The notes below the pieces were generated by a model. That model did no database searches. It was given only the letters and a program-made list of their open reading frames with translations, and was not told where the DNA came from. The translations under genes were made by a program, and so were the position numbers. Shown in pieces: positions 8,984 to 18,694 of a stretch of DNA of 64,000 nt (its first letter is position 1; every line of letters begins with the position of its first letter). This stretch comes from Colwellia sp. MB3u-45 (lineage in GTDB: Bacteria > Pseudomonadota > Gammaproteobacteria > Enterobacterales > Alteromonadaceae), in contig NZ_JACGVC010000047.1 in assembly GCF_014077005.1 (NCBI RefSeq), positions 1 through 64,000 on the forward strand. Reading direction: 5' to 3'.

Positions 8984-11881
8984 CTACTGCAACAACTGTT
9001 CAACCATTACCATAACTTGACTATACTCAGCGCTAAATTCAGTAACGGGGATCATGGCTGCGCTGTTTTGCAAGGTTGCATGGTGGCTGATGTCACGTAA
9101 CTTGCAGTAATTATCCACTAATGCCTGCTGTTGTTGTTTAGTTATAACGCCTATGTTCGCTAAATACTCCAGTAGATTAATGTTGTCTGAATAATCGCTC
9201 AAATTGGGATGCTGAGCACTGTGTGCTAAAACCAAATATTGTACAAGAAACTCAATATCGACTAAACCACCCAGTCCCTGTTTAATATCGACTTCAGTCT
9301 TTGATGACTTATCCAAGTGTTGGCGCATTTTATTACGCATTTTTATCACGTCTTCACGTAGCACTTTTTTATCACGAGTTCTCATTAAAACATTGCGTTT
9401 AATTTCTTTAAACCTGTCGGCTAATCTGGCGTGACCATAAATGACTCTGGTACGGACTAACGCTTGATGCTCCCAGGTCCAAGCGTCACTGGACTGGTAA
9501 TGAGCAAAGGTATCAATGTGCACCATTAAAAGACCGGCATTGCCCGAAGGTCTTAATCGCATGTCGAGTTCATATAAAATACCGTTTGCCATGCGAGTAT
9601 TAAATAAGTGCATCATACGTTGAGCAAGCTTTAAGTAAAATTGTCCAGCAGAAATCGACTTTTCTCCTGAGGTCATTTCTGCCAAATCAGCATCATGGAC
9701 AAACACTAAATCTAAATCAGAGCTATAACCGAGTTCAATCCCGCCTAACTTTCCATAACCAATAACAGCAAAACCTTTGTCTTGGCCGTCTAATTTACTG
9801 GTTGGCACACCAAAACGCAGTGCCATTTGTTGCCACGCTAAGTTGGCTACTTCTTCGACTAGGGCTTCTGCCAATGCAGTTAAATGATCACTGACTTTGG
9901 TAATCGGTAAAATATCAGTAATATCGGCAGCGGCGATACGTAATTGTTTAGCTTGTTTAAACTCACGTAAGGTGATCATTTGCGCTTCTTGATCGTCTTC
10001 AGGTACCCGTAACATAGTTTCACGTAGTTCCGCGACATAAGAAGATAACAGTGGTGGCTGATAAAATAATTTAGGATCAATGAGTTCATCAAGTAATATG
10101 GGAAATTTAGCAATGTGCTCTGCCACCCAACTACTGTTGCGACACAGATGAATTAATTGCTTTAATGCCCCTTCATTCTCAAATAATAATTCCAGATAGG
10201 CGGTACGTGTTGCCACCGTTTTTAGCACCCCTAATACTCGTGCTAAGGTCTGATCGGTTAGTCTTAAATCAGCAAGATGCCACAGCAGGGTTGGGATCAA
10301 TTTATCTAGCACTTGGCGGCCACGGCTGCCCATGCTGCGTTTGGTCATTTCAGCGCGAAAATCTCTCAGCGCCTGCCATATAGTTTCACTGTGAGAAAAC
10401 TCAACACCAGCTTTTGTCTCTAGCAATTGCGGAGACTGATCAATCCAAGCAATAGCCTCCTCATCGCTCCATTCACTATCCCAAAGTGTGGTCCAATATT
10501 GATCAAGCGCCTGACGGTTTGGACTTTCCTCACCAATAAGTTCACTAAATTGTTGATGAACGCCCTGCATATGAGTAGCAAGCTGTGCCAAAAAAGTTGG
10601 CCAGTTTGTACAATTTTCGTCGGCAAGAATGCTGACTAAGCGCTGCTGGTCTAATTCATTGTCAGGTAAGGTTTGAGTTTGTTGATCATTTAACGCTTGA
10701 ATAATATTTTCAACCCGACGCAAAAATCGATAACTAGCCGTTAACACTTGCGCACTGGGTTGTGTAAGCACATCGTGTGTTACCAATAAAGGCAGTACGG
10801 TGAGTAAGTTACGATGCTGTAAATCACTAACACGGCCACCTCGGATCATTTGAAAAACTTGCACAATAAATTCAACTTCGCGAATACCGCCCGCGCCCAG
10901 CTTGATATTATTATTGAGTTGCTTACGCCTAACCTCTTGGGCAATCATAGCTTTCATACGTCGCAGGCTGTCGATAACGCTAAAATCAATGTAGCGTCGA
11001 TATACAAAAGGTCGCAACATATTAGACAATTGGTCATGATACTTACCTTCTCCGACCAACCGCGCCTTTAACATCGCATAACGCTCCCAATCACGCCCTT
11101 GATCTTGATAATAATCTTCCATGGCATTAAACGATAAGACTAATGGCCCACTTTCACCAAAAGGGCGTAAACGCATATCAACACGATAAACAAAACCGTC
11201 AGCGGTATGTTGATTTAACGCGGTAATTAATTTTTGCCCTAAGCGAGTAAAAAATAATTGATTGTCGATACTTCGCCTAAGCCCTTGGGTTGCTCCCGCT
11301 TCAGGATAGACAAAAATCAAATCAATATCAGAAGAAAAGTTAAGCTCTTGTCCGCCTAATTTACCCATGCCATATACCAGTAAATTTTGGGTTTCATTGG
11401 CACTGTTGACCGGTACACCCCACTTGCTTTCACAAAACTTTGTTAACCAAGCATTAGCCGCAATAATCAAACTATCAGCTAATGAAGACAGTCGTTTTAA
11501 CGATTCATCAAGCGTTATATCCAATAGAAAATCACCAACAGCAATATCTACCATTTGCTTTAAACGAAACAATCGCAGGCACTTTTGCAGTTGTTCTTCT
11601 GTGGAGCATTTATCAATACTGTCAGCAAGCATTACGCTATATTGCGGTGTTTCACTCGACAATAACTGCTCGCTATTAAAAAGCTCAACCAGCAACTCGG
11701 GGGCTTGTATGGCACTACGCAAAATAAAGTCACTTAACCCTAATGCCCTTTTAAACAGCGCTAAGCGCTCTGGTGATAAAGTATCGGTAACATTCGGATA
11801 TTGTTGAGAAAACTCTAGCCAACTATCAGCTTGTTGGCTGGCAAGTAATGGCGGAAATGGCAAAGACGATGAATTAGACAC
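8984..11881 (-). CDS. glnE: Bifunctional glutamine-synthetase adenylyltransferase/deadenylase GlnE
   Basis: GlnE attaches AMP to, or removes it from, glutamine synthetase in response to PII and glutamine. The 965-residue protein shows the expected duplication of a nucleotidyltransferase domain. The first catalytic block is GMGKLGGQELNFSSDIDLIF near residue 170 (deadenylase half). The second is GYGKLGGIELGYSSDLDLVF near residue 700 (adenylylase half). Each is followed by a MRLRP motif and by a GGIREVEFIVQ or GGLVDIEFLVQ helix. Both Asp-x-Asp pairs are intact, so both activities are expected. The gene stands alone between the TcpQ-like gene and the PspA cluster; its promoter region (11882-11980) backs onto that cluster. 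Confidence 0.97.
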   Translation of the reverse strand: MSNSSSLPFPPLLASQQADSWLEFSQQYPNVTDTLSPERLALFKRALGLSDFILRSAIQAPELLVELFNSEQLLSSETPQYSVMLADSIDKCSTEEQLQKCLRLFRLKQMVDIAVGDFLLDITLDESLKRLSSLADSLIIAANAWLTKFCESKWGVPVNSANETQNLLVYGMGKLGGQELNFSSDIDLIFVYPEAGATQGLRRSIDNQLFFTRLGQKLITALNQHTADGFVYRVDMRLRPFGESGPLVLSFNAMEDYYQDQGRDWERYAMLKARLVGEGKYHDQLSNMLRPFVYRRYIDFSVIDSLRRMKAMIAQEVRRKQLNNNIKLGAGGIREVEFIVQVFQMIRGGRVSDLQHRNLLTVLPLLVTHDVLTQPSAQVLTASYRFLRRVENIIQALNDQQTQTLPDNELDQQRLVSILADENCTNWPTFLAQLATHMQGVHQQFSELIGEESPNRQALDQYWTTLWDSEWSDEEAIAWIDQSPQLLETKAGVEFSHSETIWQALRDFRAEMTKRSMGSRGRQVLDKLIPTLLWHLADLRLTDQTLARVLGVLKTVATRTAYLELLFENEGALKQLIHLCRNSSWVAEHIAKFPILLDELIDPKLFYQPPLLSSYVAELRETMLRVPEDDQEAQMITLREFKQAKQLRIAAADITDILPITKVSDHLTALAEALVEEVANLAWQQMALRFGVPTSKLDGQDKGFAVIGYGKLGGIELGYSSDLDLVFVHDADLAEMTSGEKSISAGQFYLKLAQRMMHLFNTRMANGILYELDMRLRPSGNAGLLMVHIDTFAHYQSSDAWTWEHQALVRTRVIYGHARLADRFKEIKRNVLMRTRDKKVLREDVIKMRNKMRQHLDKSSKTEVDIKQGLGGLVDIEFLVQYLVLAHSAQHPNLSDYSDNINLLEYLANIGVITKQQQQALVDNYCKLRDISHHATLQNSAAMIPVTEFSAEYSQVMVMVEQLLQ

Positions 11882-11979
11882 GTTATCCTCGATAAAAGCT
11901 AAAATGAAAATGAGTAAGGTAAGTAATAATTAATAACAATCAGTAACAAATTAATTTCACTGATATACTTAAAAAAATA

Positions 11980-11992
11980 GACATAATATGTC
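11980..11992. promoter_or_regulatory. Palindromic operator candidate, copy 1 (GACATAATATGTC)
   Basis: A perfect 6+1+6 palindrome lying 46 bp before the chosen start of the lipoprotein gene. A TATACT hexamer at 11964-11969 could be the -10 of the promoter, which would put the palindrome at about +5 to +17, a repressor-like position; the -35 is weak. Two further copies occur at 15847-15861 and 15882-15898 in the same gene cluster. I found no other full copy in the window by reading. Confidence 0.6.
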
Positions 11993-12038
11993 AGAAGTGA
12001 TACTAATGAATGATAACCATAGCATTTTTGAGGACACT

Positions 12039-13016
12039 ATGGCAGGAATGCAGCCGCTAAAATCAATGATACTCTTGCTAACGTTATTGCTCTCCGCTTG
12101 TGGAGATCCAATAAAAGGGCAAATCACTCAACAAATCCCACTCACTGAACAACGTATTGAATTACTTGCTCAAGCACTTGCTAACGGGCAAGTTCGTAAT
12201 GCTAATTTGATTACTCAATACGGGGAGAGATTACTACAAAGTAAGCCAGATTATAAACCCTTAATTGACGAGTTTTTAAAAGATACCGGCACAAAAGGCC
12301 CGATGTTTATTGCCTTAGTTGACCGACTAAATACGGTAAAAAAACAACCACAAATGTTTGAGAGTTCTCAAGCTATTTATGATGAGTTATTAAACCTGTA
12401 TCAAGCAGCCGATCCCGTTCTATATTCTGATGCCTTAAGCGATCCGCTTAATGTCTTGGCTGATATGTCTGATGGCACTTTACCGCGCGTTAATGCGATG
12501 TCAAAAGAGCAAAGCTTAGCAGCCAATAAAGCACAAGACTTTGGCACAGGTGAACAGCTTATTGGCAATCCGTCTTACGGTAACTGGACTACTGGCTCAA
12601 ATGGCATGTCATTTTGGGCTTGGTACGGTATGTACTCGATGATGGGTGATGTATTTGGCTCTCGCCGAACGAGTTATAATGATTGGGGCCGTAACCGAAA
12701 TTATAGTTATTACAATGATTATGGCCGCAAGCGCTACAGCTCGCCAAATCAACTAAGTAAACAAACTGATTTAGATGCTCGCACCAAAAAATCATTTCAA
12801 AGCCGCGGCCAAAAATACACCAGTACTTACAGCAAAAATAGAACTGGCGCGTCAAGTATTTCTAGCCAGAGCAAAAGCGCACAAACCAGTGCCAATCGAT
12901 TTGCTAGCAAAACAGCCAATAAAAGCGCTTATGCAAGATCAAGCACAAGTGGAAAAAATGCTAGCTTTAGAAACAGTAAGAGTACAACGTCACGAAGCTT
13001 TAGACGTGGAAAGTAG
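12039..13016 (+). CDS. Lipoprotein with basic Ser/Arg/Tyr-rich tail, first gene of the PspA cluster
   Basis: From the ATG at 12039 the product is 325 residues. A longer frame opens at 11988, but that ATG lies inside the palindromic operator and has no ribosome site, whereas GAGG sits 5 bases before 12039. The signal peptide MQPLKSMILLLTLLLSAC ends in a lipobox (Cys21). A helical region to about residue 170 is followed by a low-complexity tail rich in Ser, Arg, Lys, Asn and Tyr (about 185-325), starting with GMSFWAWYGMYSMMGDVFG. I do not recognise a named family. E. coli YjfM (DUF1190), a lipoprotein beside the PspA paralogue YjfJ, has a similar layout with a SFWMPLMAGYMMG-like segment, so this may be its counterpart; that is inference. 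Confidence 0.75.
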   Translation: MAGMQPLKSMILLLTLLLSACGDPIKGQITQQIPLTEQRIELLAQALANGQVRNANLITQYGERLLQSKPDYKPLIDEFLKDTGTKGPMFIALVDRLNTVKKQPQMFESSQAIYDELLNLYQAADPVLYSDALSDPLNVLADMSDGTLPRVNAMSKEQSLAANKAQDFGTGEQLIGNPSYGNWTTGSNGMSFWAWYGMYSMMGDVFGSRRTSYNDWGRNRNYSYYNDYGRKRYSSPNQLSKQTDLDARTKKSFQSRGQKYTSTYSKNRTGASSISSQSKSAQTSANRFASKTANKSAYARSSTSGKNASFRNSKSTTSRSFRRGK

Positions 13017-13024
13017 GGATAAGT

Positions 13025-13927
13025 ATGAATACATTTATTGAAATAACTGGTCTAAATATAGAGTTATTAATTTTCTTAGCTATCGATATAACGATTGCCA
13101 TTATATTACTTTGCGCCATGCGCTTTATTAGTGGTTTATCTGCAAAAGTTAACTCTACAGACGAACTTGCCAAAGAAGATAACTTTGCTTTTGGTGTTAG
13201 TGTTGCCGGTAGTGTTGCTGCCTTGGGTATTGTACTAACGGGTGCCATTACCGGTGAAAATGCCGAAAGTTATTTAATGGAAATTGTCGGCATGGCAAGC
13301 TATGGCATTTTAGGTTTAATTTTAATTAAAGTAGGCCGGGTTTTTCATGACCGTTTTGCTTTAAACCAAATAGATAAAAATGCGCAAATTAAAGCCCATA
13401 ATATCTCAGTGGGTATTGTCGATGCTTCAGGTGCTATTGCCACCGCCATTATTATTCGCGCGGTATTACTGTGGGTTTACGGTTTAGATATCAACACCTT
13501 TATCGCTATTATTGCTGGCTTTATAGTCTCACAAGCCATGTTAGTGTTAGTTACCCGTATTAAAGAACGCCAGTATGCTAAAAACAATCAAAATAGCTGC
13601 ATGCAAAATGCCTTTGCTGAAGGCCAAGTGGCTCTCGCCATTCGTTATGCTGGTCAAGTTATTAGTACGGCCCTAGCGGTAACAGCTGCCAGCCACTTTT
13701 TAACTTATAGCCCAGAGACCTTATTAGCTAATATAGTTGGCTGGTTTATCTTTGGTATAATTATGACCATATTAGTCGCTGTTCTTACTTCTATTGCTAA
13801 ACGCCTAGTGCTGATGGGTATCAACTTAGTTGAGGAAGTAGACCATCAACACAATATTGGTGTCGCCAGTGTTGAGATGGCGATTAGCATTTCAATTGCG
13901 CTTATTTTAACGGCGTTAATGTCATAG
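13025..13927 (+). CDS. Tandem DUF350 inner-membrane protein (YjfL/UPF0719-like)
   Basis: 300 residues with about eight hydrophobic helices. It is built from two copies of the DUF350 unit: one at residues about 15-150 (FAFGVSVAGSVAALGIVLTG, then ESYLMEIVGMASYGILGLIL) and a second at about 200-300 (NAFAEGQVALAIRYAGQVIS, then ETLLANIVGWFIFGIIMTIL). E. coli YjfL (UPF0719) is a single-unit relative and lies in the yjfIJKLM cluster with a PspA paralogue. The function is unknown; a membrane partner of PspA is the usual suggestion. It starts 8 bp after the lipoprotein stop, so the two form an operon, and a long hairpin follows. Confidence 0.88.
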   Translation: MNTFIEITGLNIELLIFLAIDITIAIILLCAMRFISGLSAKVNSTDELAKEDNFAFGVSVAGSVAALGIVLTGAITGENAESYLMEIVGMASYGILGLILIKVGRVFHDRFALNQIDKNAQIKAHNISVGIVDASGAIATAIIIRAVLLWVYGLDINTFIAIIAGFIVSQAMLVLVTRIKERQYAKNNQNSCMQNAFAEGQVALAIRYAGQVISTALAVTAASHFLTYSPETLLANIVGWFIFGIIMTILVAVLTSIAKRLVLMGINLVEEVDHQHNIGVASVEMAISISIALILTALMS

Positions 13928-13948
13928 TTTTATCAAAATTTTGCTATT

Positions 13949-13986
13949 AAAATAACCAAGGGTAAATTATTACGCTTGGTTATTTT
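13949..13986 (+). terminator. Long hairpin between the DUF350 and SpeE-like genes
   Basis: The arms AAAATAACCAAG (13949-13960) and CTTGGTTATTTT (13975-13986) pair perfectly. An inner GTAA/TTAC extension closes the loop and a short T-rich end follows. It looks like a terminator or attenuator that would reduce readthrough from the lipoprotein-DUF350 pair into the next gene. A processing or stabilising hairpin is the alternative. Confidence 0.65.
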
Positions 13987-14030
13987 CCCCGTTTCATTAA
14001 ACACCCATTTAACTCAAGCTAGGAATAACC

Positions 14031-15737
14031 ATGACAAGCAATAGAAATCGCCTATGGGATGATGTACTCCTGATTTTAACTATGGCTGTTTTAGCGGGTT
14101 GTGGCCTGATATACGAATACCTATTGTCACATTATGCCGGTCGTGTACTGGGTATTATGGAAAGTACCATTTACGCTATGATTGGCCTGATGATTGTCGC
14201 TATGGGTTTAGGTGCTTTTGCGGCGCGAAAAATTCAATGCGCCTTTAATGGCTTTGTTTGGTTAGAGCTAATGATTGCTTTTCTGGGTAGTAGCTCAATA
14301 CTCATTATTGGTGGACTGATCGCCATCACACAAACTTTTCCTGACATATTAGGCTCGATGTTTAACTTGCCCCCTGACGCCTACCCGCGAGGTGGTTTAT
14401 TTAAACAACTGAGTTTTATTGCCTTTAATAGTCCCTATTTTTTCGGTCTAATTCTGGGCTTTTTTATTGGTATGGAAATCCCCCTTATTGCACGCATTCG
14501 CGAAGAAATACATCAAAAACATCTTAAAAATAATCTTGGCACCATTTACGGCGCTGATTATATTGGCGCCGGTATTGGCGCTGCCATTTGGGTAATATTT
14601 CTCTTATCTATAGACATCAGCAAAGCGAGTGCATTAACTGCCGCCTTAAATCTAACTGCTGGCATTGTATTTATTTTATATTATTGGCAAAAACTGACCT
14701 GGCGAAAAACCTTAATAACGGCTCATGGCATTTTATTAGTGATGATCATGGCAATTTACCAATTTGGTAATGGCTGGTTAAGTCAAATGAGTAACTTACT
14801 TTATCTCGACAAAGTTGTTTATAGTGACAAAACGCGTTTTCAACAACTGACTTTTACCAAAAGAAATATGGGCCCTGAAGAAGGCAGCATTATTAACTTT
14901 TATTTAAATGGCCGCTTACAGTTTTCATCCTCAGATGAATTTATTTACCACAGTTATCTTGTTAGCCCAGTATTAGCTGGCTCAGCACGCCATGACAACA
15001 TTCTCATTATTGGTGGCGGTGATGGCCTAGCATTAAGAGATGTTTTACAGTGGCAACCTAAAAAAGTCACCTTAGTGGATTTAGATGCGCAACTCATTGA
15101 ATTATTTAAAAATCCACATGATAAATTACCTCTGAGGCTGGCTAATGCCATTGAAGACTTAAACGCAGTAAGTTTGCGCGATGAGCGTGTTGAAATTATT
15201 GCCGCTGATGCTTTTATCGCTATCGATCAACTATTGCAAAGCCATCAAACCTTTGACGCGATTATTGTTGACCTACCCGACCCCAGCCATCCAGATTTAA
15301 ATAAACTTTATTCAGTTAATTTTTATGCCCGATTAAAGCAACTACTGGCGGGCGATGGCTTAATTGGCATTCAATCGGCCAGTCCTTATCATGCTAAAGA
15401 CGCCTTTATTGCTATTGGTAAAACGGTACAAGCCGCTGGATATTCAACGGTTCAGCAATATCATGACAACGTACCTAGTTTCGGCGAATGGGGTTGGACT
15501 ATTGCCAGTAAAATGGGCGCAGCGCCTTTAACAAGATTAAAACGCTTACCTCAATTGCCTGTTGATCACCATTGGCTAACCTTACCTATGGTGACTAATG
15601 CCTTTGAATTTTCTCGAGATTTTTATCAAGACAGTGAAACCGTACCGATTAATTACCTTGGCAGTCATGCAATTTATCAATTACATCAAAAAGCATGGCA
15701 AGATCAACAAGGCTTGAACAATGCTCATTTACAGTGA
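14031..15737 (+). CDS. Membrane-embedded spermidine-synthase-like aminopropyltransferase
   Basis: 568 residues: about seven transmembrane helices (residues 12-250) followed by a cytosolic spermidine-synthase-type Rossmann domain (about 255-520). The decarboxylated-SAM-binding loop IIGGGDGLALRD is at 326-337, the acidic LVDLD at 348-352, and the catalytic region VDLPDPSHPDLNKLYS at 413-428. The latter keeps the aspartates of the polyamine synthase signature. Membrane SpeE-like proteins of this type are repeatedly found with PspA, DUF350 and YjfC-like genes. The acceptor amine is not known, so polyamine synthesis is an inference from the fold. No S-adenosylmethionine decarboxylase or YjfC-like ligase gene occurs in the window. 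Confidence 0.88.
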   Translation: MTSNRNRLWDDVLLILTMAVLAGCGLIYEYLLSHYAGRVLGIMESTIYAMIGLMIVAMGLGAFAARKIQCAFNGFVWLELMIAFLGSSSILIIGGLIAITQTFPDILGSMFNLPPDAYPRGGLFKQLSFIAFNSPYFFGLILGFFIGMEIPLIARIREEIHQKHLKNNLGTIYGADYIGAGIGAAIWVIFLLSIDISKASALTAALNLTAGIVFILYYWQKLTWRKTLITAHGILLVMIMAIYQFGNGWLSQMSNLLYLDKVVYSDKTRFQQLTFTKRNMGPEEGSIINFYLNGRLQFSSSDEFIYHSYLVSPVLAGSARHDNILIIGGGDGLALRDVLQWQPKKVTLVDLDAQLIELFKNPHDKLPLRLANAIEDLNAVSLRDERVEIIAADAFIAIDQLLQSHQTFDAIIVDLPDPSHPDLNKLYSVNFYARLKQLLAGDGLIGIQSASPYHAKDAFIAIGKTVQAAGYSTVQQYHDNVPSFGEWGWTIASKMGAAPLTRLKRLPQLPVDHHWLTLPMVTNAFEFSRDFYQDSETVPINYLGSHAIYQLHQKAWQDQQGLNNAHLQ

Positions 15738-15845
15738 GCACAATGAATACAGATAAACTGCAACGGCATTATTGATCTTTTATTTAGCACCAAGACGTTT
15801 GATATAGCTTAAGCTAAGATAAAATAAGAAAAATGAAATAAGCAC

Positions 15846-15898
15846 TTGACATAATATGTCATGATGCTAAATTAACCCAATACGACATATTATGTCGT
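15846..15898 (+). promoter_or_regulatory. Promoter flanked by two palindromic operators (copies 2 and 3)
   Basis: A consensus -35 TTGACA (15846-15851) overlaps operator copy 2, a 15-bp palindrome TGACATAATATGTCA at 15847-15861. A possible -10 TAAATT is at 15868-15873. Copy 3 is a 17-bp palindrome, ACGACATATTATGTCGT, at 15882-15898, near or just after the expected start point. Copies 2 and 3 are 36 bp apart centre to centre. Occupancy of both sites would block the promoter of the DUF2170-pspA genes. The regulator is unknown; the RHH protein at 17816-18145 is the local candidate. Confidence 0.65.
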
Positions 15899-15952: not shown

Positions 15953-16366
15953 ATGAATATTCATAAAATAGCTGACTACCTAAATACCTTGGCTGATGAT
16001 TCAGATACTGGGATGGTGTTTGATTGCCAACCCATTTCAGGTGAAGTCGATGTATTACAAATTTCGGTATTCGGCCGTGAAGAGTTACCTATTTTTGTGT
16101 CGGTAACGGATGATCAAATTCTTTGTATCACCTACCTCTGGGGTGAAGAAGAAGTTAAATCAGACAAGATAAATGAAATGCATGTCAGTATGTTAGAAAT
16201 GAACATACCTATGCCATTATCTTCATTTTCGAAAATTGGTGATAAATATGTCATTTTTGGTGCGCTAGCGATTAGCTCAACATTTGATGATATCGAACAC
16301 GAACTAGCGGTATTGAGCAATAATGCGCTAGAAATTATTGATGACATGAGTGATTACTTAATTTAA
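15953..16366 (+). CDS. DUF2170 protein (YjfI-like)
   Basis: 137 residues, acidic and without membrane segments. The chosen start is the ATG at 15953, because GAGG (15943-15946) is correctly spaced before it. An ATG at 15941 would place this ribosome site inside the gene. The sequence (FDCQPISGEVDVLQISVFGREELPIFVS in two parts, then a CITYLWGEEEVK block and late MPLSSFSKIG) matches DUF2170, the family of E. coli YjfI. In E. coli yjfI is directly followed by the PspA paralogue yjfJ, and the same order holds here (20 bp gap). The function is unknown; co-occurrence suggests that it assists or regulates PspA. Confidence 0.85.
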   Translation: MNIHKIADYLNTLADDSDTGMVFDCQPISGEVDVLQISVFGREELPIFVSVTDDQILCITYLWGEEEVKSDKINEMHVSMLEMNIPMPLSSFSKIGDKYVIFGALAISSTFDDIEHELAVLSNNALEIIDDMSDYLI

Positions 16367-16389
16367 GCAACCACCTTAGGAGTATTATG

Positions 16390-17079
16390 ATGAGTATTTT
16401 TAAAAAAATTATGACCGCTATTCGCGGCGGCGCAACTGAAGTCGGTGAAAACATTATTGACTCAAATGCAACCCGTATTTTTGAACAAGAAATTCGTGAC
16501 GCAGAAAATCACCTCACTAAAGCTAAACGTGACCTAACCGGTGTTATGGCACAACAAATGTCGTCTAGCCGTGACGTTGAGCGCATTAAGCGTGAAGTTA
16601 CTGAGCATGAAGGTTATGCCGTTCAAGCCCTAGAAAAAGGTGACGACGAACTTGCTTTAGCAGTTGCTGAAAAGATATCAGCACTTGAAAATGAACTCGC
16701 CACGCAGCAACAATCACTTGATAGCTTTCAAGGCAGTGCTGAACGCTTGAAAGAGTTAGTGAAAAAGAGTGAACGTCACGTAGCTGAATACAAACGTCAA
16801 TTGTCTATGGTGAAAACCACAGAAAGCGTGCAAAAAGCCACCTCGGCAATTACCGATAACTTCTCATCAAGTAACTCTAAGCTATTAAGTGCCAAAGACT
16901 CATTAGAGCGCATTAAAGCTAAGCAACAGAAATTTGATGATCGCATGAAAGCCGCTGAAGTACTTGAGTCAGAAAACTCAGATAACTCACTTGAAGCTAA
17001 GCTTAAAGAAGCTGGCATTGGCGCTAGTGACAACAACGCAAATTCAGTATTAGAGCGTTTAAAAGCTAAAAAGAAGTAA
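16390..17079 (+). CDS. PspA/IM30 family envelope-stress protein (YjfJ-like)
   Basis: A 229-residue, almost entirely coiled-coil protein of the PspA/Vipp1 (ESCRT-III-like) family. These bind stressed inner membranes and form rods or rings. The N-terminal amphipathic helix MSIFKKIMTAIRGGATEVGE should insert into the membrane. DSNATRIFEQEIRDAENHL, the long heptad region to about residue 180, and the tail LEAKLKEAGIG followed by NSVLERLKAKKK match YjfJ rather than classical PspA. Two ATGs (16387 and 16390) are possible; AGGAG is better spaced (7 bases) for the second. No pspF, pspB or pspC genes are near, so regulation must differ from the classical Psp response. Confidence 0.92.
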   Translation: MSIFKKIMTAIRGGATEVGENIIDSNATRIFEQEIRDAENHLTKAKRDLTGVMAQQMSSSRDVERIKREVTEHEGYAVQALEKGDDELALAVAEKISALENELATQQQSLDSFQGSAERLKELVKKSERHVAEYKRQLSMVKTTESVQKATSAITDNFSSSNSKLLSAKDSLERIKAKQQKFDDRMKAAEVLESENSDNSLEAKLKEAGIGASDNNANSVLERLKAKKK

Positions 17080-17095
17080 CTTACAAGTTACTACC

Positions 17096-17129
17096 ACCGC
17101 TTTGTATCCATGATGCAAAGCGGTTTTTT
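17096..17129 (+). terminator. Rho-independent terminator after the PspA gene
   Basis: The arms ACCGCTTTG and CAAAGCGGT pair perfectly across an 11-base loop and are followed by six T residues. This would make the DUF2170-PspA pair the main transcript, with the DUF2491-RHH-channel genes expressed by readthrough or from another promoter. Confidence 0.85.
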
Positions 17130-17174: not shown

Positions 17175-17813
17175 GTGAGCTTTTTTAAAAATATATTTAA
17201 GAAACCAACGCCAGAACGTAAACTCAATAATGTAAAAGAACTCACCCTAGGTGACATCATTGTGCTATCAGACAGTTTTGGTTTGCCCGCAGCACTAAGA
17301 GCGCAAGAATTTCAAGTAACGGCCGTTAACAGCTATGAATTTGAAAATAAAACTCAAGCAGAATGGGTTTTGCAGGGCGGTGACAATACAGAGTTGTATT
17401 TAACTTTGGACGTTGATGATAAAACCTATCTAAAATTTTCCCTGAAAATATTGCATCAAGATGTTGAAACACTGTTTGATCTTGAGCAATTTGCTGAAGT
17501 TTTCGATGAACCGGGTCAAGCGCAATTAGAGCGCATAGCAGACAGTAGCACCACGTCAGGCTGGAGCAGCGAAATATATCGACAAAGCAGTTATGCCCAA
17601 GTAGGTTACTTTCATCGCAAAGATTATCGAAAAGATGAACTCTCAGCTTACCAAGGCAAAGACAGTGGTGAGCAATTTGAGCTTTATTCGCTATTTGATG
17701 AAGATCAAGATAAAGGCGTCGATATTGAAGTATGGCAAGACGGCGATACCGAAGTATTTTTAACCTTATTTAAACCCACCACAGATATTGTTGATATGTA
17801 TCCAGGGAGTTAA
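17175..17813 (+). CDS. DUF2491 protein (YjfK-like)
   Basis: 212 residues with no signal peptide or membrane helix. It starts with GTG at 17175, preceded by GGAG six bases upstream. LTLGDIIVLSDSFGLPAALR near the N-terminus and the later YRQSSYAQVGYFHRKDY and VDIEVWQDGDTEVFLTLF blocks match DUF2491, represented by E. coli YjfK next to the PspA paralogue YjfJ. It is acidic and beta-rich. The biochemical function is unknown. It follows the PspA terminator by 45 bp and precedes the RHH gene by 2 bp, so those two are translationally coupled. Confidence 0.85.
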   Translation: MSFFKNIFKKPTPERKLNNVKELTLGDIIVLSDSFGLPAALRAQEFQVTAVNSYEFENKTQAEWVLQGGDNTELYLTLDVDDKTYLKFSLKILHQDVETLFDLEQFAEVFDEPGQAQLERIADSSTTSGWSSEIYRQSSYAQVGYFHRKDYRKDELSAYQGKDSGEQFELYSLFDEDQDKGVDIEVWQDGDTEVFLTLFKPTTDIVDMYPGS

Positions 17814-17815
17814 TT

Positions 17816-18145
17816 GTGTCACGAAAAATTCCCGACAAATGGCAATCATCCGTAAAAGCGGTCAAAGCAGTGCAAGTTGCTTTTGATATGGATGAGAAAA
17901 TTCAACTCGCCATTAGAAAGCAAGCGTTAGAGGCTGGTATCAGCCCGTCAGAGCAAATTCGAGACATTCTGGGCTTACCGATAAATAAGCGCCCTAAACG
18001 TCCAAGATTAACCGTAAGCTTGTCAGCTGACGATTATGCCTTACTGGCTGAAAAATATGCTTTATCATCAGAACAGCAACTTGAAATTAAGAAAAAATTA
18101 ATGGATGATTTAATTAATTATGTCAATAATAGCCTTATTGACTAA
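17816..18145 (+). CDS. Tandem ribbon-helix-helix protein, candidate regulator of the cluster
   Basis: 109 residues, basic, beginning at a GTG with GGGAG six bases before it. Two segments fit the ribbon-helix-helix pattern of MetJ/Arc/CopG proteins. The first has strand VQVAFDMD (19-26) and helices EKIQLAIRKQALEAG and SPSEQIRDILG (27-53). The second has strand RLTVSLSAD (64-72) and helices to about residue 105. The first contains the hydrophobic core and the G-x-S-x-S-E-x-IR turn typical of DNA-binding members. A basic linker (NKRPKRPR) joins them. RHH proteins usually bind short palindromes near their own operon, and three GACATA-N-TATGTC palindromes are present here. DNA binding is inferred. 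I know no E. coli equivalent in the yjf cluster. Confidence 0.6.
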   Translation: MSRKIPDKWQSSVKAVKAVQVAFDMDEKIQLAIRKQALEAGISPSEQIRDILGLPINKRPKRPRLTVSLSADDYALLAEKYALSSEQQLEIKKKLMDDLINYVNNSLID

Positions 18146-18211: not shown

Positions 18212-18694
18212 ATGATAGTCGTTCAAAAAGCAATGGAGAAAACTAATTTATACCGTGTTGATGACTTCGGCATAAAAAATTACAACTACGGCTTTATTGG
18301 CATTGCCTCTTTCCTCTTATTTTTAACCTTAAACTTATCCTTGGGCTATATTACCTATCAAGCTGAGTATGGGCTTGAAGGCTCAAACATAAAAAGCTAT
18401 AGCGATGCTATTTGGCTAATGGTGATGTCTTCTACCACGATTGGTTTTGGTGACGTTTACCCCATCACTTTTATTGGTCGAGCGTCTGTTTTTATTATGT
18501 TTATACTCGGCGTAGGTATACTGGGTGCTATGGGGGCGATGTTTATCAACAAAATATTTGGTTTTGCCGATACCAACATTAAAAACAGAGAGCTGAGAAT
18601 GCAAAATGCTCAAATTATTACTCAAAATACCGCCATCACTGAAAAGCTAACGCAATTAGAAGAAAAACTTGAGTTATTAGCTAAAAAGCTTTAA
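18212..18694 (+). CDS. Two-transmembrane potassium channel
   Basis: 160 residues. A first membrane helix (about 28-50), a pore loop with the selectivity-filter sequence TTIGFGD (75-81), a second helix (about 87-112) and a C-terminal coiled coil (about 125-160) make a minimal K+ channel of the ion-channel-2 family. No RCK domain is present. It follows the RHH gene by 66 bp. Such a channel is a recurrent partner of PspA/DUF350/SpeE-like clusters and could respond to membrane potential or polyamine block; the latter is speculation. An alternative start is the ATG at 18230. Confidence 0.85.
   Translation: MIVVQKAMEKTNLYRVDDFGIKNYNYGFIGIASFLLFLTLNLSLGYITYQAEYGLEGSNIKSYSDAIWLMVMSSTTIGFGDVYPITFIGRASVFIMFILGVGILGAMGAMFINKIFGFADTNIKNRELRMQNAQIITQNTAITEKLTQLEEKLELLAKKL

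What the first reader, a model, noticed from the sequence alone, without database searches (positions are those of the whole stretch)
11980..15898. Three copies of one long palindrome (GACATA-N-TATGTC) at both promoters of the PspA cluster
Seen directly: perfect palindromes of 13, 15 and 17 bp with the same core at 11980-11992, 15847-15861 and 15882-15898. Two flank a promoter with a consensus -35 and one sits just before the first gene. I noticed no other full copy in 64 kb. This looks like a dedicated operator tying the lipoprotein-DUF350 and DUF2170-PspA halves into one regulon. I know of no named regulator with this motif.
Basis: seen in the sequence. Interest (0 to 1): 0.8.

Follow-up and report, generated by a model that had tools for sequence, protein, structure and literature searches.

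The report
Operator of a hidden membrane-stress regulon
A short mirror-image DNA word found three times beside a membrane-repair gene cluster marks a conserved set of membrane-protection genes in marine bacteria, and it travels with one small DNA-binding protein encoded in the same cluster, which is therefore probably the switch for them.

Summary
The 4.17-Mb genome holds six copies against 0.2-0.4 expected. The other three precede an NfeD/SPFH operon, a second pspA-pspC operon, and nhaA plus an SPFH gene. In relatives htpX-like and yqiJ-type genes join. The motif tracks a 109-residue protein at 17816-18145: in 147 genomes of the family all 65 with it have at least two sites, and 80 of 82 without it have at most one. 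Eighty of 80 named loci have two operators before DUF2170-pspA, the first containing the -35 hexamer. Of 11 genomes outside the order, 6 keep paired operators, two in loci of 64-67% G+C; 3 have degenerate pairs, 2 none. Two families with the protein but few exact sites have near-copies there. A medium-confidence model shows two ribbon-helix-helix units in one chain. Best reading: a single-chain RHH repressor of a membrane-stress regulon, parallel to PspF-sigma54 control. Binding, repression and signal are inferred, not shown.

The parts
11980..11992 (.). operator A, GACATAATATGTC, before the lipoprotein-DUF350-spermidine-synthase-like unit
   Evidence: exact match; a site at this promoter in 75 of 80 named relatives
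11961..11969 (+). possible extended -10 (TGATATACT) that would put operator A just after the transcript start
   Evidence: sequence; inferred; the consensus scan proposes another weak promoter here, CTGATA-16-CATAAT at 11960-11987
12039..13016 (+). lipoprotein gene, first gene of unit 1 (longest ORF starts at 11988, inside the operator)
   Evidence: ORF, lipobox-like LSAC by eye; start choice inferred from GAGG 5 nt before ATG 12039; no Pfam match
13025..13927 (+). DUF350 (YjfL-type) membrane protein
   Evidence: PF03994, E 1.5e-34
14031..15737 (+). spermidine-synthase-like protein with an N-terminal extension that Ravi 2024 calls a 7TM transporter-like domain
   Evidence: PF01564 E 3.2e-31; NF002956 591.5 bits, over its cut-off; for the extension
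15847..15861 (.). operator B, TGACATAATATGTCA, contains the -35 hexamer of the DUF2170-pspA promoter
   Evidence: TTGACA at this place in 80 of 80 named relatives
15846..15873 (+). sigma-70-type promoter TTGACA-16-TAAATT with TG before the -10
   Evidence: best -10 at spacer 16 in 77 of 80 relatives, 76 of them matching TATAAT at 4 of 6; promoter-like sites as such are not enriched in the region, 20 against 19.4 in shuffles
15882..15898 (.). operator C, ACGACATATTATGTCGT, just after the predicted transcript start, 36 bp centre to centre from operator B
   Evidence: spacing 34-39 in 80 of 80 relatives, 35 or 36 in 74
15953..16366 (+). DUF2170 (YjfI/BacA-type) gene; ORF extends to 15941
   Evidence: PF09938 E 2.1e-35; start inferred from the MNIHK start of relatives
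16387..17079 (+). PspA/IM30 protein, DUF2170-linked type
   Evidence: PF04012 E 4.2e-41
17096..17124 (+). terminator-like hairpin, 13 pairs, between pspA and the DUF4178-RHH genes
   Evidence: terminator-like by a loose script rule in 65 of 79 relatives
17175..17813 (+). DUF4178-like protein
   Evidence: PF13785 E 4e-4, below its cut-off; Ravi 2024 names DUF4178 in this operon
17816..18145 (+). tandem ribbon-helix-helix protein, proposed regulator
   Evidence: co-occurrence, place in the cluster, model and fold matches
18212..18694 (+). ion-channel (Kch-like) protein after the RHH gene
   Evidence: PF07885 E 9.6e-9; membership in the regulon not shown

Best explanation
The palindrome is the operator of the tandem ribbon-helix-helix protein at 17816-18145. 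The protein folds two RHH units from one chain into one DNA-binding sheet, and two chains bind the two half-sites GACAT(A) and (T)ATGTC. Bound operators cover core promoter elements (the -35, the -10 or the first transcribed bases), so the protein is most likely a repressor. Under membrane stress it lets go, and a set of inner-membrane protection genes is switched on together: DUF2170-PspA, lipoprotein-DUF350-aminopropyltransferase-like, a second PspA-PspC, NfeD/SPFH, NhaA-SPFH, and in relatives HtpX-like and YqiJ-type genes. The regulator lies in the same cluster behind a terminator-like hairpin, so it is probably topped up by read-through, a slow negative feedback. Shown by computation: the sites, their conservation, the gene set, the co-occurrence and the tandem strand-helix-helix pattern of a medium-confidence model. 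Inferred: binding, repression, stoichiometry and the nature of the signal. The likeliest signal route is titration or capture of the repressor by DUF2170, PspA or DUF4178.
Confidence: 0.82

Rival explanations
1. The palindrome is bound by another regulator encoded elsewhere, for example the Lrp-type gene divergent from nhaA; the RHH gene is a passenger of the cluster.
For: The Lrp-type gene (named by eye) flanks a site in 5 of 15 genomes examined. Orthologues at 73% identity or more occur in 52 of 147 genomes, 51 of which carry the RHH gene and sites (counted by hand).
Against: Fourteen of the 65 genomes with RHH and sites lack that orthologue, and G012 has it (86% identical) with no RHH match and no site. 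In 9 of 11 genomes outside the order operators or degenerate pairs sit in the RHH cluster. Other transcription factors could not be screened exhaustively.
Confidence: 0.1
2. The RHH protein binds the operators but activates, or switches between repression and activation.
For: The RHH gene lies inside the regulated cluster, as positive autoregulators also do (general knowledge; cluster order).
Against: Operator 1 overlaps the -35 at the DUF2170 promoter in 80 of 80 loci, a position that fits occlusion. The promoter has a perfect -35 and a TG before the -10, so it should need no activator.
Confidence: 0.1
3. The palindrome is a shared promoter or RNA element (TTGACA and TATTAT happen to fit into it), not an operator.
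For: Operator B contains a consensus -35 in 80 of 80 loci, so part of its conservation may be promoter conservation.
Against: Operator C lies downstream of the -10 and is conserved as a full palindrome in 80 of 80 loci. The motif is missing from nearly all genomes without the RHH gene although these have promoters too. It survives in loci of 64-67% G+C.
Confidence: 0.02

Closest known systems
CesT/Tir(DUF2170)-PspA operon group 2 of Ravi et al. 2024 (PMC11237479; passages read)
   Same: Same gene set: lipoprotein, DUF350, spermidine-synthase-like protein with N-terminal 7TM domain, DUF2170, PspA, DUF4178 and, 'in some cases', a final ribbon-helix-helix transcription-factor gene.
   Different: The main text has one sentence on this RHH gene and no occurrence of 'operator' or 'palindrom'. 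The passages read give no target sites. Supplements were not read.
E. coli-type Psp response (PspF, sigma54)
   Same: PspA-centred response to inner-membrane damage. This genome also has it: pspF over its cut-off, beside pspA and two genes that look like pspB and pspC.
   Different: Control there is by an activator; the PspF-linked operon has none of the six exact palindromes. The RHH-linked pspA genes form a separate system.
Bacillus subtilis sigmaW regulon (PMC3498285; table passages read)
   Same: Gene content is similar: pspA-ydjGHI, yuaFGI (with floT) and yqeZ-yqfAB are under one regulator; by recall these hold NfeD and flotillin proteins.
   Different: Control there is by an ECF sigma factor; here by a predicted RHH repressor. 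nhaA and htpX are not in the passages read.
CopG, Arc and MetJ type RHH repressors (from general knowledge, no call)
   Same: Strand-helix-helix units, short palindromic operators, tandem sites over promoters. CopG is recalled to use a 13-bp pseudosymmetric element.
   Different: Those are homodimers of single units. This protein carries two units per chain and would run 5 promoter regions in this genome.
Tandem RHH proteins: F-plasmid TraY, lipothrixvirus AvtR, designed single-chain Arc
   Different: Sequence identity 12-20%; roles in conjugation or virus gene control, not membrane stress.
Pseudomonas aeruginosa bac cluster (PMC10948618; passages read)
   Same: DUF2170 (BacA) followed by a PspA homologue (BacB), whose abundance is reported to rise in osmotic shock.
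   Different: Authors propose a sigma54 site before bacA; 'operator' does not occur in the text, and the passages read mention no RHH gene.

Membership tests
Ribbon-helix-helix (MetJ/Arc/CopG) superfamily | strand-helix-helix unit | tested here: met
   AlphaFold2 model: E19-22 H27-40 H44-52 and E66-69 H71-80 H88-108; mean pLDDT 72, pTM 0.59
Ribbon-helix-helix (MetJ/Arc/CopG) superfamily | structural similarity to known RHH proteins | tested here: inconclusive
Ribbon-helix-helix (MetJ/Arc/CopG) superfamily | sequence match to a curated RHH model | tested here: inconclusive
   only weak hits, NikA-like PF21983 E 0.02 and RelB/DinJ NF008412 E 0.011, both below cut-off; PDB profile search gave no RHH chain. 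Ravi 2024 calls the gene in this place RHH
Ribbon-helix-helix (MetJ/Arc/CopG) superfamily | operator contact through the two-stranded sheet | not testable with these tools
   Q20, A22, R64 and L65 are invariant in 20 aligned proteins, which fits but does not show contact
Psp response | PspA/IM30 protein | tested here: met
   PspA_IM30 at 16387-17079 and in the L082 operon
Psp response | induction by membrane stress | not testable with these tools
   the stress link is inferred from gene content
PspF-sigma54 Psp system | pspF next to the operon | tested here: not met
   the pspF over its cut-off is on contig C44 beside another pspA; none of the 11 matches lies on the window's contig C47
Ravi 2024 group 2 operon | lipoprotein, DUF350, spermidine-synthase-like, DUF2170, PspA, DUF4178, RHH together | tested here: met
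   the set recurs in relatives, with DUF4178 or unit 1 not found in some distant ones

The most novel reading that the evidence does not exclude
Marine gammaproteobacteria run a second, PspF-independent phage-shock-like response under one master repressor, a natural single-chain RHH protein. It is freed from DNA when the DUF2170 chaperone, PspA or DUF4178 captures it at the damaged membrane, so that a T3SS-chaperone-like protein acts as the anti-repressor, and the response couples PspA to SPFH/NfeD, HtpX quality control, NhaA ion balance and polyamine-like chemistry.
Probability: 0.3. Interest if true: 0.8.

Novelty: new variant of a known kind. Interest (0 to 1): 0.66.

Why it matters
DUF2170 genes are widespread (113 of 147 genomes of the family), and a 2024 paper says that little is known about DUF2170 proteins (PMC10948618, passage). 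An operator, a regulator candidate and a gene list turn that into a direct test in a laboratory organism: Ravi et al. cite AAN56746.1, by recall Shewanella oneidensis MR-1. The regulon also gives guilt-by-association evidence that NfeD/SPFH, HtpX and NhaA work with PspA, a grouping seen in part in the Bacillus sigmaW regulon but here under an unrelated regulator. It also offers a natural tandem RHH protein with a short operator kept in loci from about 40 to 67% G+C.

Tried and rejected
Chance: rejected by counts, controls and conservation. Degenerate matches in the own genome are half noise: 21 places with up to 2 mismatches in the 15-mer against 10 for the reversed control. One, with one mismatch, lies about 125-139 bp before a Bax1-I (YccA-type) gene (L086) and is plausible; another (L085) lies inside an ORF. 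Lrp-type regulator: rejected as the main candidate. PspF-sigma54 as the controller of these promoters: the pspF over cut-off is elsewhere with its own pspA. A solved homologue of the RHH protein by sequence: none convincing. Literature for the motif: five spellings searched anywhere in the held library gave one unrelated plant paper. Six other searches with RHH, PspA, HtpX, NhaA, YjfI or stress terms listed no paper whose title or abstract start describes this regulon; three of these lists were capped (20 of 24, 20 of 32, 8 of 41 papers shown). Only PMC11237479, PMC10948618 and PMC3498285 were opened, by passages; PMC9239133 and PMC8581546 were seen as listings only. Guessed S. oneidensis locus tags gave nothing.

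Families f11 and f25 looked like counter-examples (RHH present, few exact sites). Reading 6 and 4 of their clusters showed operator variants at the same place. A search for GACATTNAATGTC in eight f11 genomes found one site each in seven and two in one, so the regulon there may have shrunk to the cluster; other variant words were not searched. The single exact sites that most f25 genomes have were not examined. Negative controls: exact sites in five genomes without RHH (L023-L027) have neighbours that by eye are not of the recurring groups, though L025 faces a transporter-like gene (no family scan). Of seven comparison stretches without RHH, L140 was a 100-base stub of no use; the other six (L134-L139) have no GACAT-N3-ATGTC site.

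Rows dropped or partial: A2 leaves out L218 because its coordinates held a stop. One search used the 80 kept of 237 relatives found; L189 and L198 have the contig lengths of G003:C5 and G001:C22, so the two sets overlap. One search used the sites fetched from 15 genomes, not every site of each: G025 cluster sites were not fetched, and two of G220's 'other' rows lie at the cluster's own promoters by coordinate. Of the 22 'other' regions, downstream genes of 14 were scanned against Pfam (8 with a match, 6 without) and 8 were not. The tables were typed from the outputs.
Full report
What is there. The whole genome has six copies in five promoter regions; expectation is 0.19 (first-order Markov) to 0.44 (base composition), and the reversed pattern has none. 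The three outside the window precede (i) an NfeD gene followed by two Band_7/SPFH genes (L083), (ii) a 97-residue protein of unknown family, a PspA over the TIGR02977 cut-off and a PspC-domain protein (L082), and (iii) nhaA followed by a Band_7 gene (L084). All five regions head genes of membrane-associated families.

Anatomy in the window. Operator B (15847-15861) contains the -35 hexamer TTGACA; sixteen bases on comes TAAATT with TG before it; operator C (15882-15898) begins nine bases after the end of that -10, so it would cover the first transcribed bases. The centres are 36 bp apart. Operator A (11980-11992) stands in a similar relation to a possible extended -10 at 11961-11969. At nhaA and the second pspA the word TATTAT inside the palindrome could itself be the -10; this is my reading of the sequence printed, not a test. 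Promoter-like sites as such are not enriched in this region (20 against 19.4 in shuffles), so the promoter reading leans on conservation. Between pspA and DUF4178 there is a 13-pair terminator-like hairpin, with something terminator-like by a loose script rule in 65 of 79 relatives, so the RHH gene probably gets less transcription than pspA.

Conservation. Eighty named loci, the best of 237 relatives found (Colwellia, Thalassotalea, Litorilituus, Thalassomonas, a Shewanella and others), all have two exact operators before DUF2170, 34 to 39 bp apart (35 or 36 in 74), with TTGACA at the same place in all 80. Seventy-five of 80 have an exact site before the lipoprotein gene, and all 235 sites in 1.11 Mb lie at one of these two promoters.

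Who reads it. In 147 genomes of the family the number of exact sites splits in two groups. All 65 genomes with the RHH protein have 2 to 13 sites; of 82 without it, 73 have 0, 7 have 1 and 2 have 2. By genus it is 25 of 25 against 2 of 27. DUF2170 is present in 48 genomes that lack the RHH protein, and 41 of them have no site (6 have one, 1 has two), although in 4 of 6 such loci fetched the DUF2170 is a distant type. In 394 genomes of the order, 82 of 116 with the RHH protein have at least two sites against 5 of 278 without. The misses are informative: 23 of the 34 RHH genomes with fewer than two sites are in one family (f11) and 9 in another (f25). In 6 of 6 f11 clusters fetched, two operator variants such as GACATATAATGAC and GACATTTAATGTC stand at the usual place, 38 or 39 bp apart; in 4 of 4 f25 clusters a single GACTTATTATGTC copy stands just before DUF2170. 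The remaining two (G436, G460) were not examined. Two of the five RHH-negative genomes with two or more sites (G251, G420) are 88% and 93% complete and belong to families where others have the gene.

An out-of-sample test. Of 369 genomes across the class, 11 outside the order have the RHH protein. I fetched all 11 clusters. Six have paired operators before DUF2170 with at least one exact copy and another within one mismatch; two of these loci have 64% and 67% G+C, where about 1e-4 exact copies are expected per locus. Three have degenerate pairs: two genomes of one genus share CCCATA in place of GACATA in both operators, and one has AACATATTATGTC with a two-mismatch partner. Two have no site, and tblastn found no DUF2170 or pspA near the RHH gene. 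In five of the six, two of the operators are 15 bp apart, and in one 18, not 36; 36 minus 15 is two helical turns, as if the face of the helix were kept (inference).

The regulon. In 15 genomes I examined 77 promoter regions with exact sites. Fifty-five fall in recurring groups: DUF2170-pspA 12, htpX-like M48 peptidase 9, NfeD 7, nhaA 7, lipoprotein 5, Band_7 4, the 97-residue protein before pspA 3, YqiJ 3, a group YqiJ-like by eye without a Pfam match 3, other pspA 2; 22 do not. Of the 22, 14 were scanned: a YidC-family protein, Yip1, DUF805, a bacterial PH-domain protein and an ion channel, which fit; an M16 peptidase, a hydrolase and a secretion adaptor, which do not tell; and six without a match. 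The genome also has a pspF beside another pspA, with none of the six exact palindromes, so there are at least three PspA proteins and, on this reading, two control systems.

Mechanism and limits. The positions over -35, and over the first transcribed bases, fit a repressor that blocks RNA polymerase. The promoter has a perfect -35 and a TG before the -10, so it should need no activator. I commit to repression with release under membrane stress. What the protein senses is unknown; capture by DUF2170, PspA or DUF4178 is the likeliest because they are its steadiest neighbours (DUF4178 is not found in some distant clusters), and because T3SS chaperones, said to share the fold of BacA, are said to have post-transcriptional regulatory activity (PMC10948618, passage). 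None of this has been tested by experiment. The statistics ignore shared ancestry, although the pattern repeats in many families.

Against what is known. Ravi et al. 2024 described the operon and noted that its last gene is in some cases an RHH transcription factor (passages); the main text holds no 'operator' or 'palindrom'. Five spellings of the motif give no relevant paper in the held library. The gene set resembles part of the Bacillus sigmaW regulon (passages) under an unrelated kind of regulator. I therefore file it as a new variant of a known kind: an RHH-controlled Psp-type membrane-stress regulon.

Noticed in passing
window 17096-17124: Strong terminator-like hairpin between pspA and the DUF4178-RHH genes, terminator-like by a loose rule in 65 of 79 relatives; may set the ratio of PspA to its regulator.
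   Followed up: partly
window 11988-12050: The longest ORF of the lipoprotein gene starts inside operator A; ATG 12039 with a GAGG before it is a likelier start.
   Followed up: partly
L082 10526-11865: Second pspA operon: an unknown 97-residue protein with a signal-peptide-like start, PspA, PspC-domain protein, with the palindrome; the 97-residue family recurs in 3 of 15 genomes.
   Followed up: partly
L086 2486-2500: One-mismatch 15-mer copy about 125-139 bp before a Bax1-I (YccA-type) gene; possible further regulon member.
   Followed up: partly
L296-L298, L303, L304, L306: Outside the order two operators lie 15 (in one case 18) bp apart instead of 35-36; 36 minus 15 is two helical turns.
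   Followed up: no
L301, L302: Both operators carry CCCATA in place of GACATA in one half-site, and the first RHH strand reads SIRAIQLAFEFS where the window has KAVQVAFDMD: possible co-change of protein and site.
   Followed up: no
L084 6700-7167: Lrp-type regulator (by eye) divergent from nhaA, sharing the intergenic region with the palindrome; orthologues in 52 of 147 genomes of the family.
   Followed up: partly
window 8984-11881: A glnE-like ORF (named from recall, not scanned) lies divergent to operator A; the same neighbour is seen in 7 of 15 genomes.
   Followed up: no
L198: The record titled Endozoicomonas sp. G2_1 has the contig length of G001:C22, a genome placed in the window's own family; the title may be a misnomer.
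   Followed up: no
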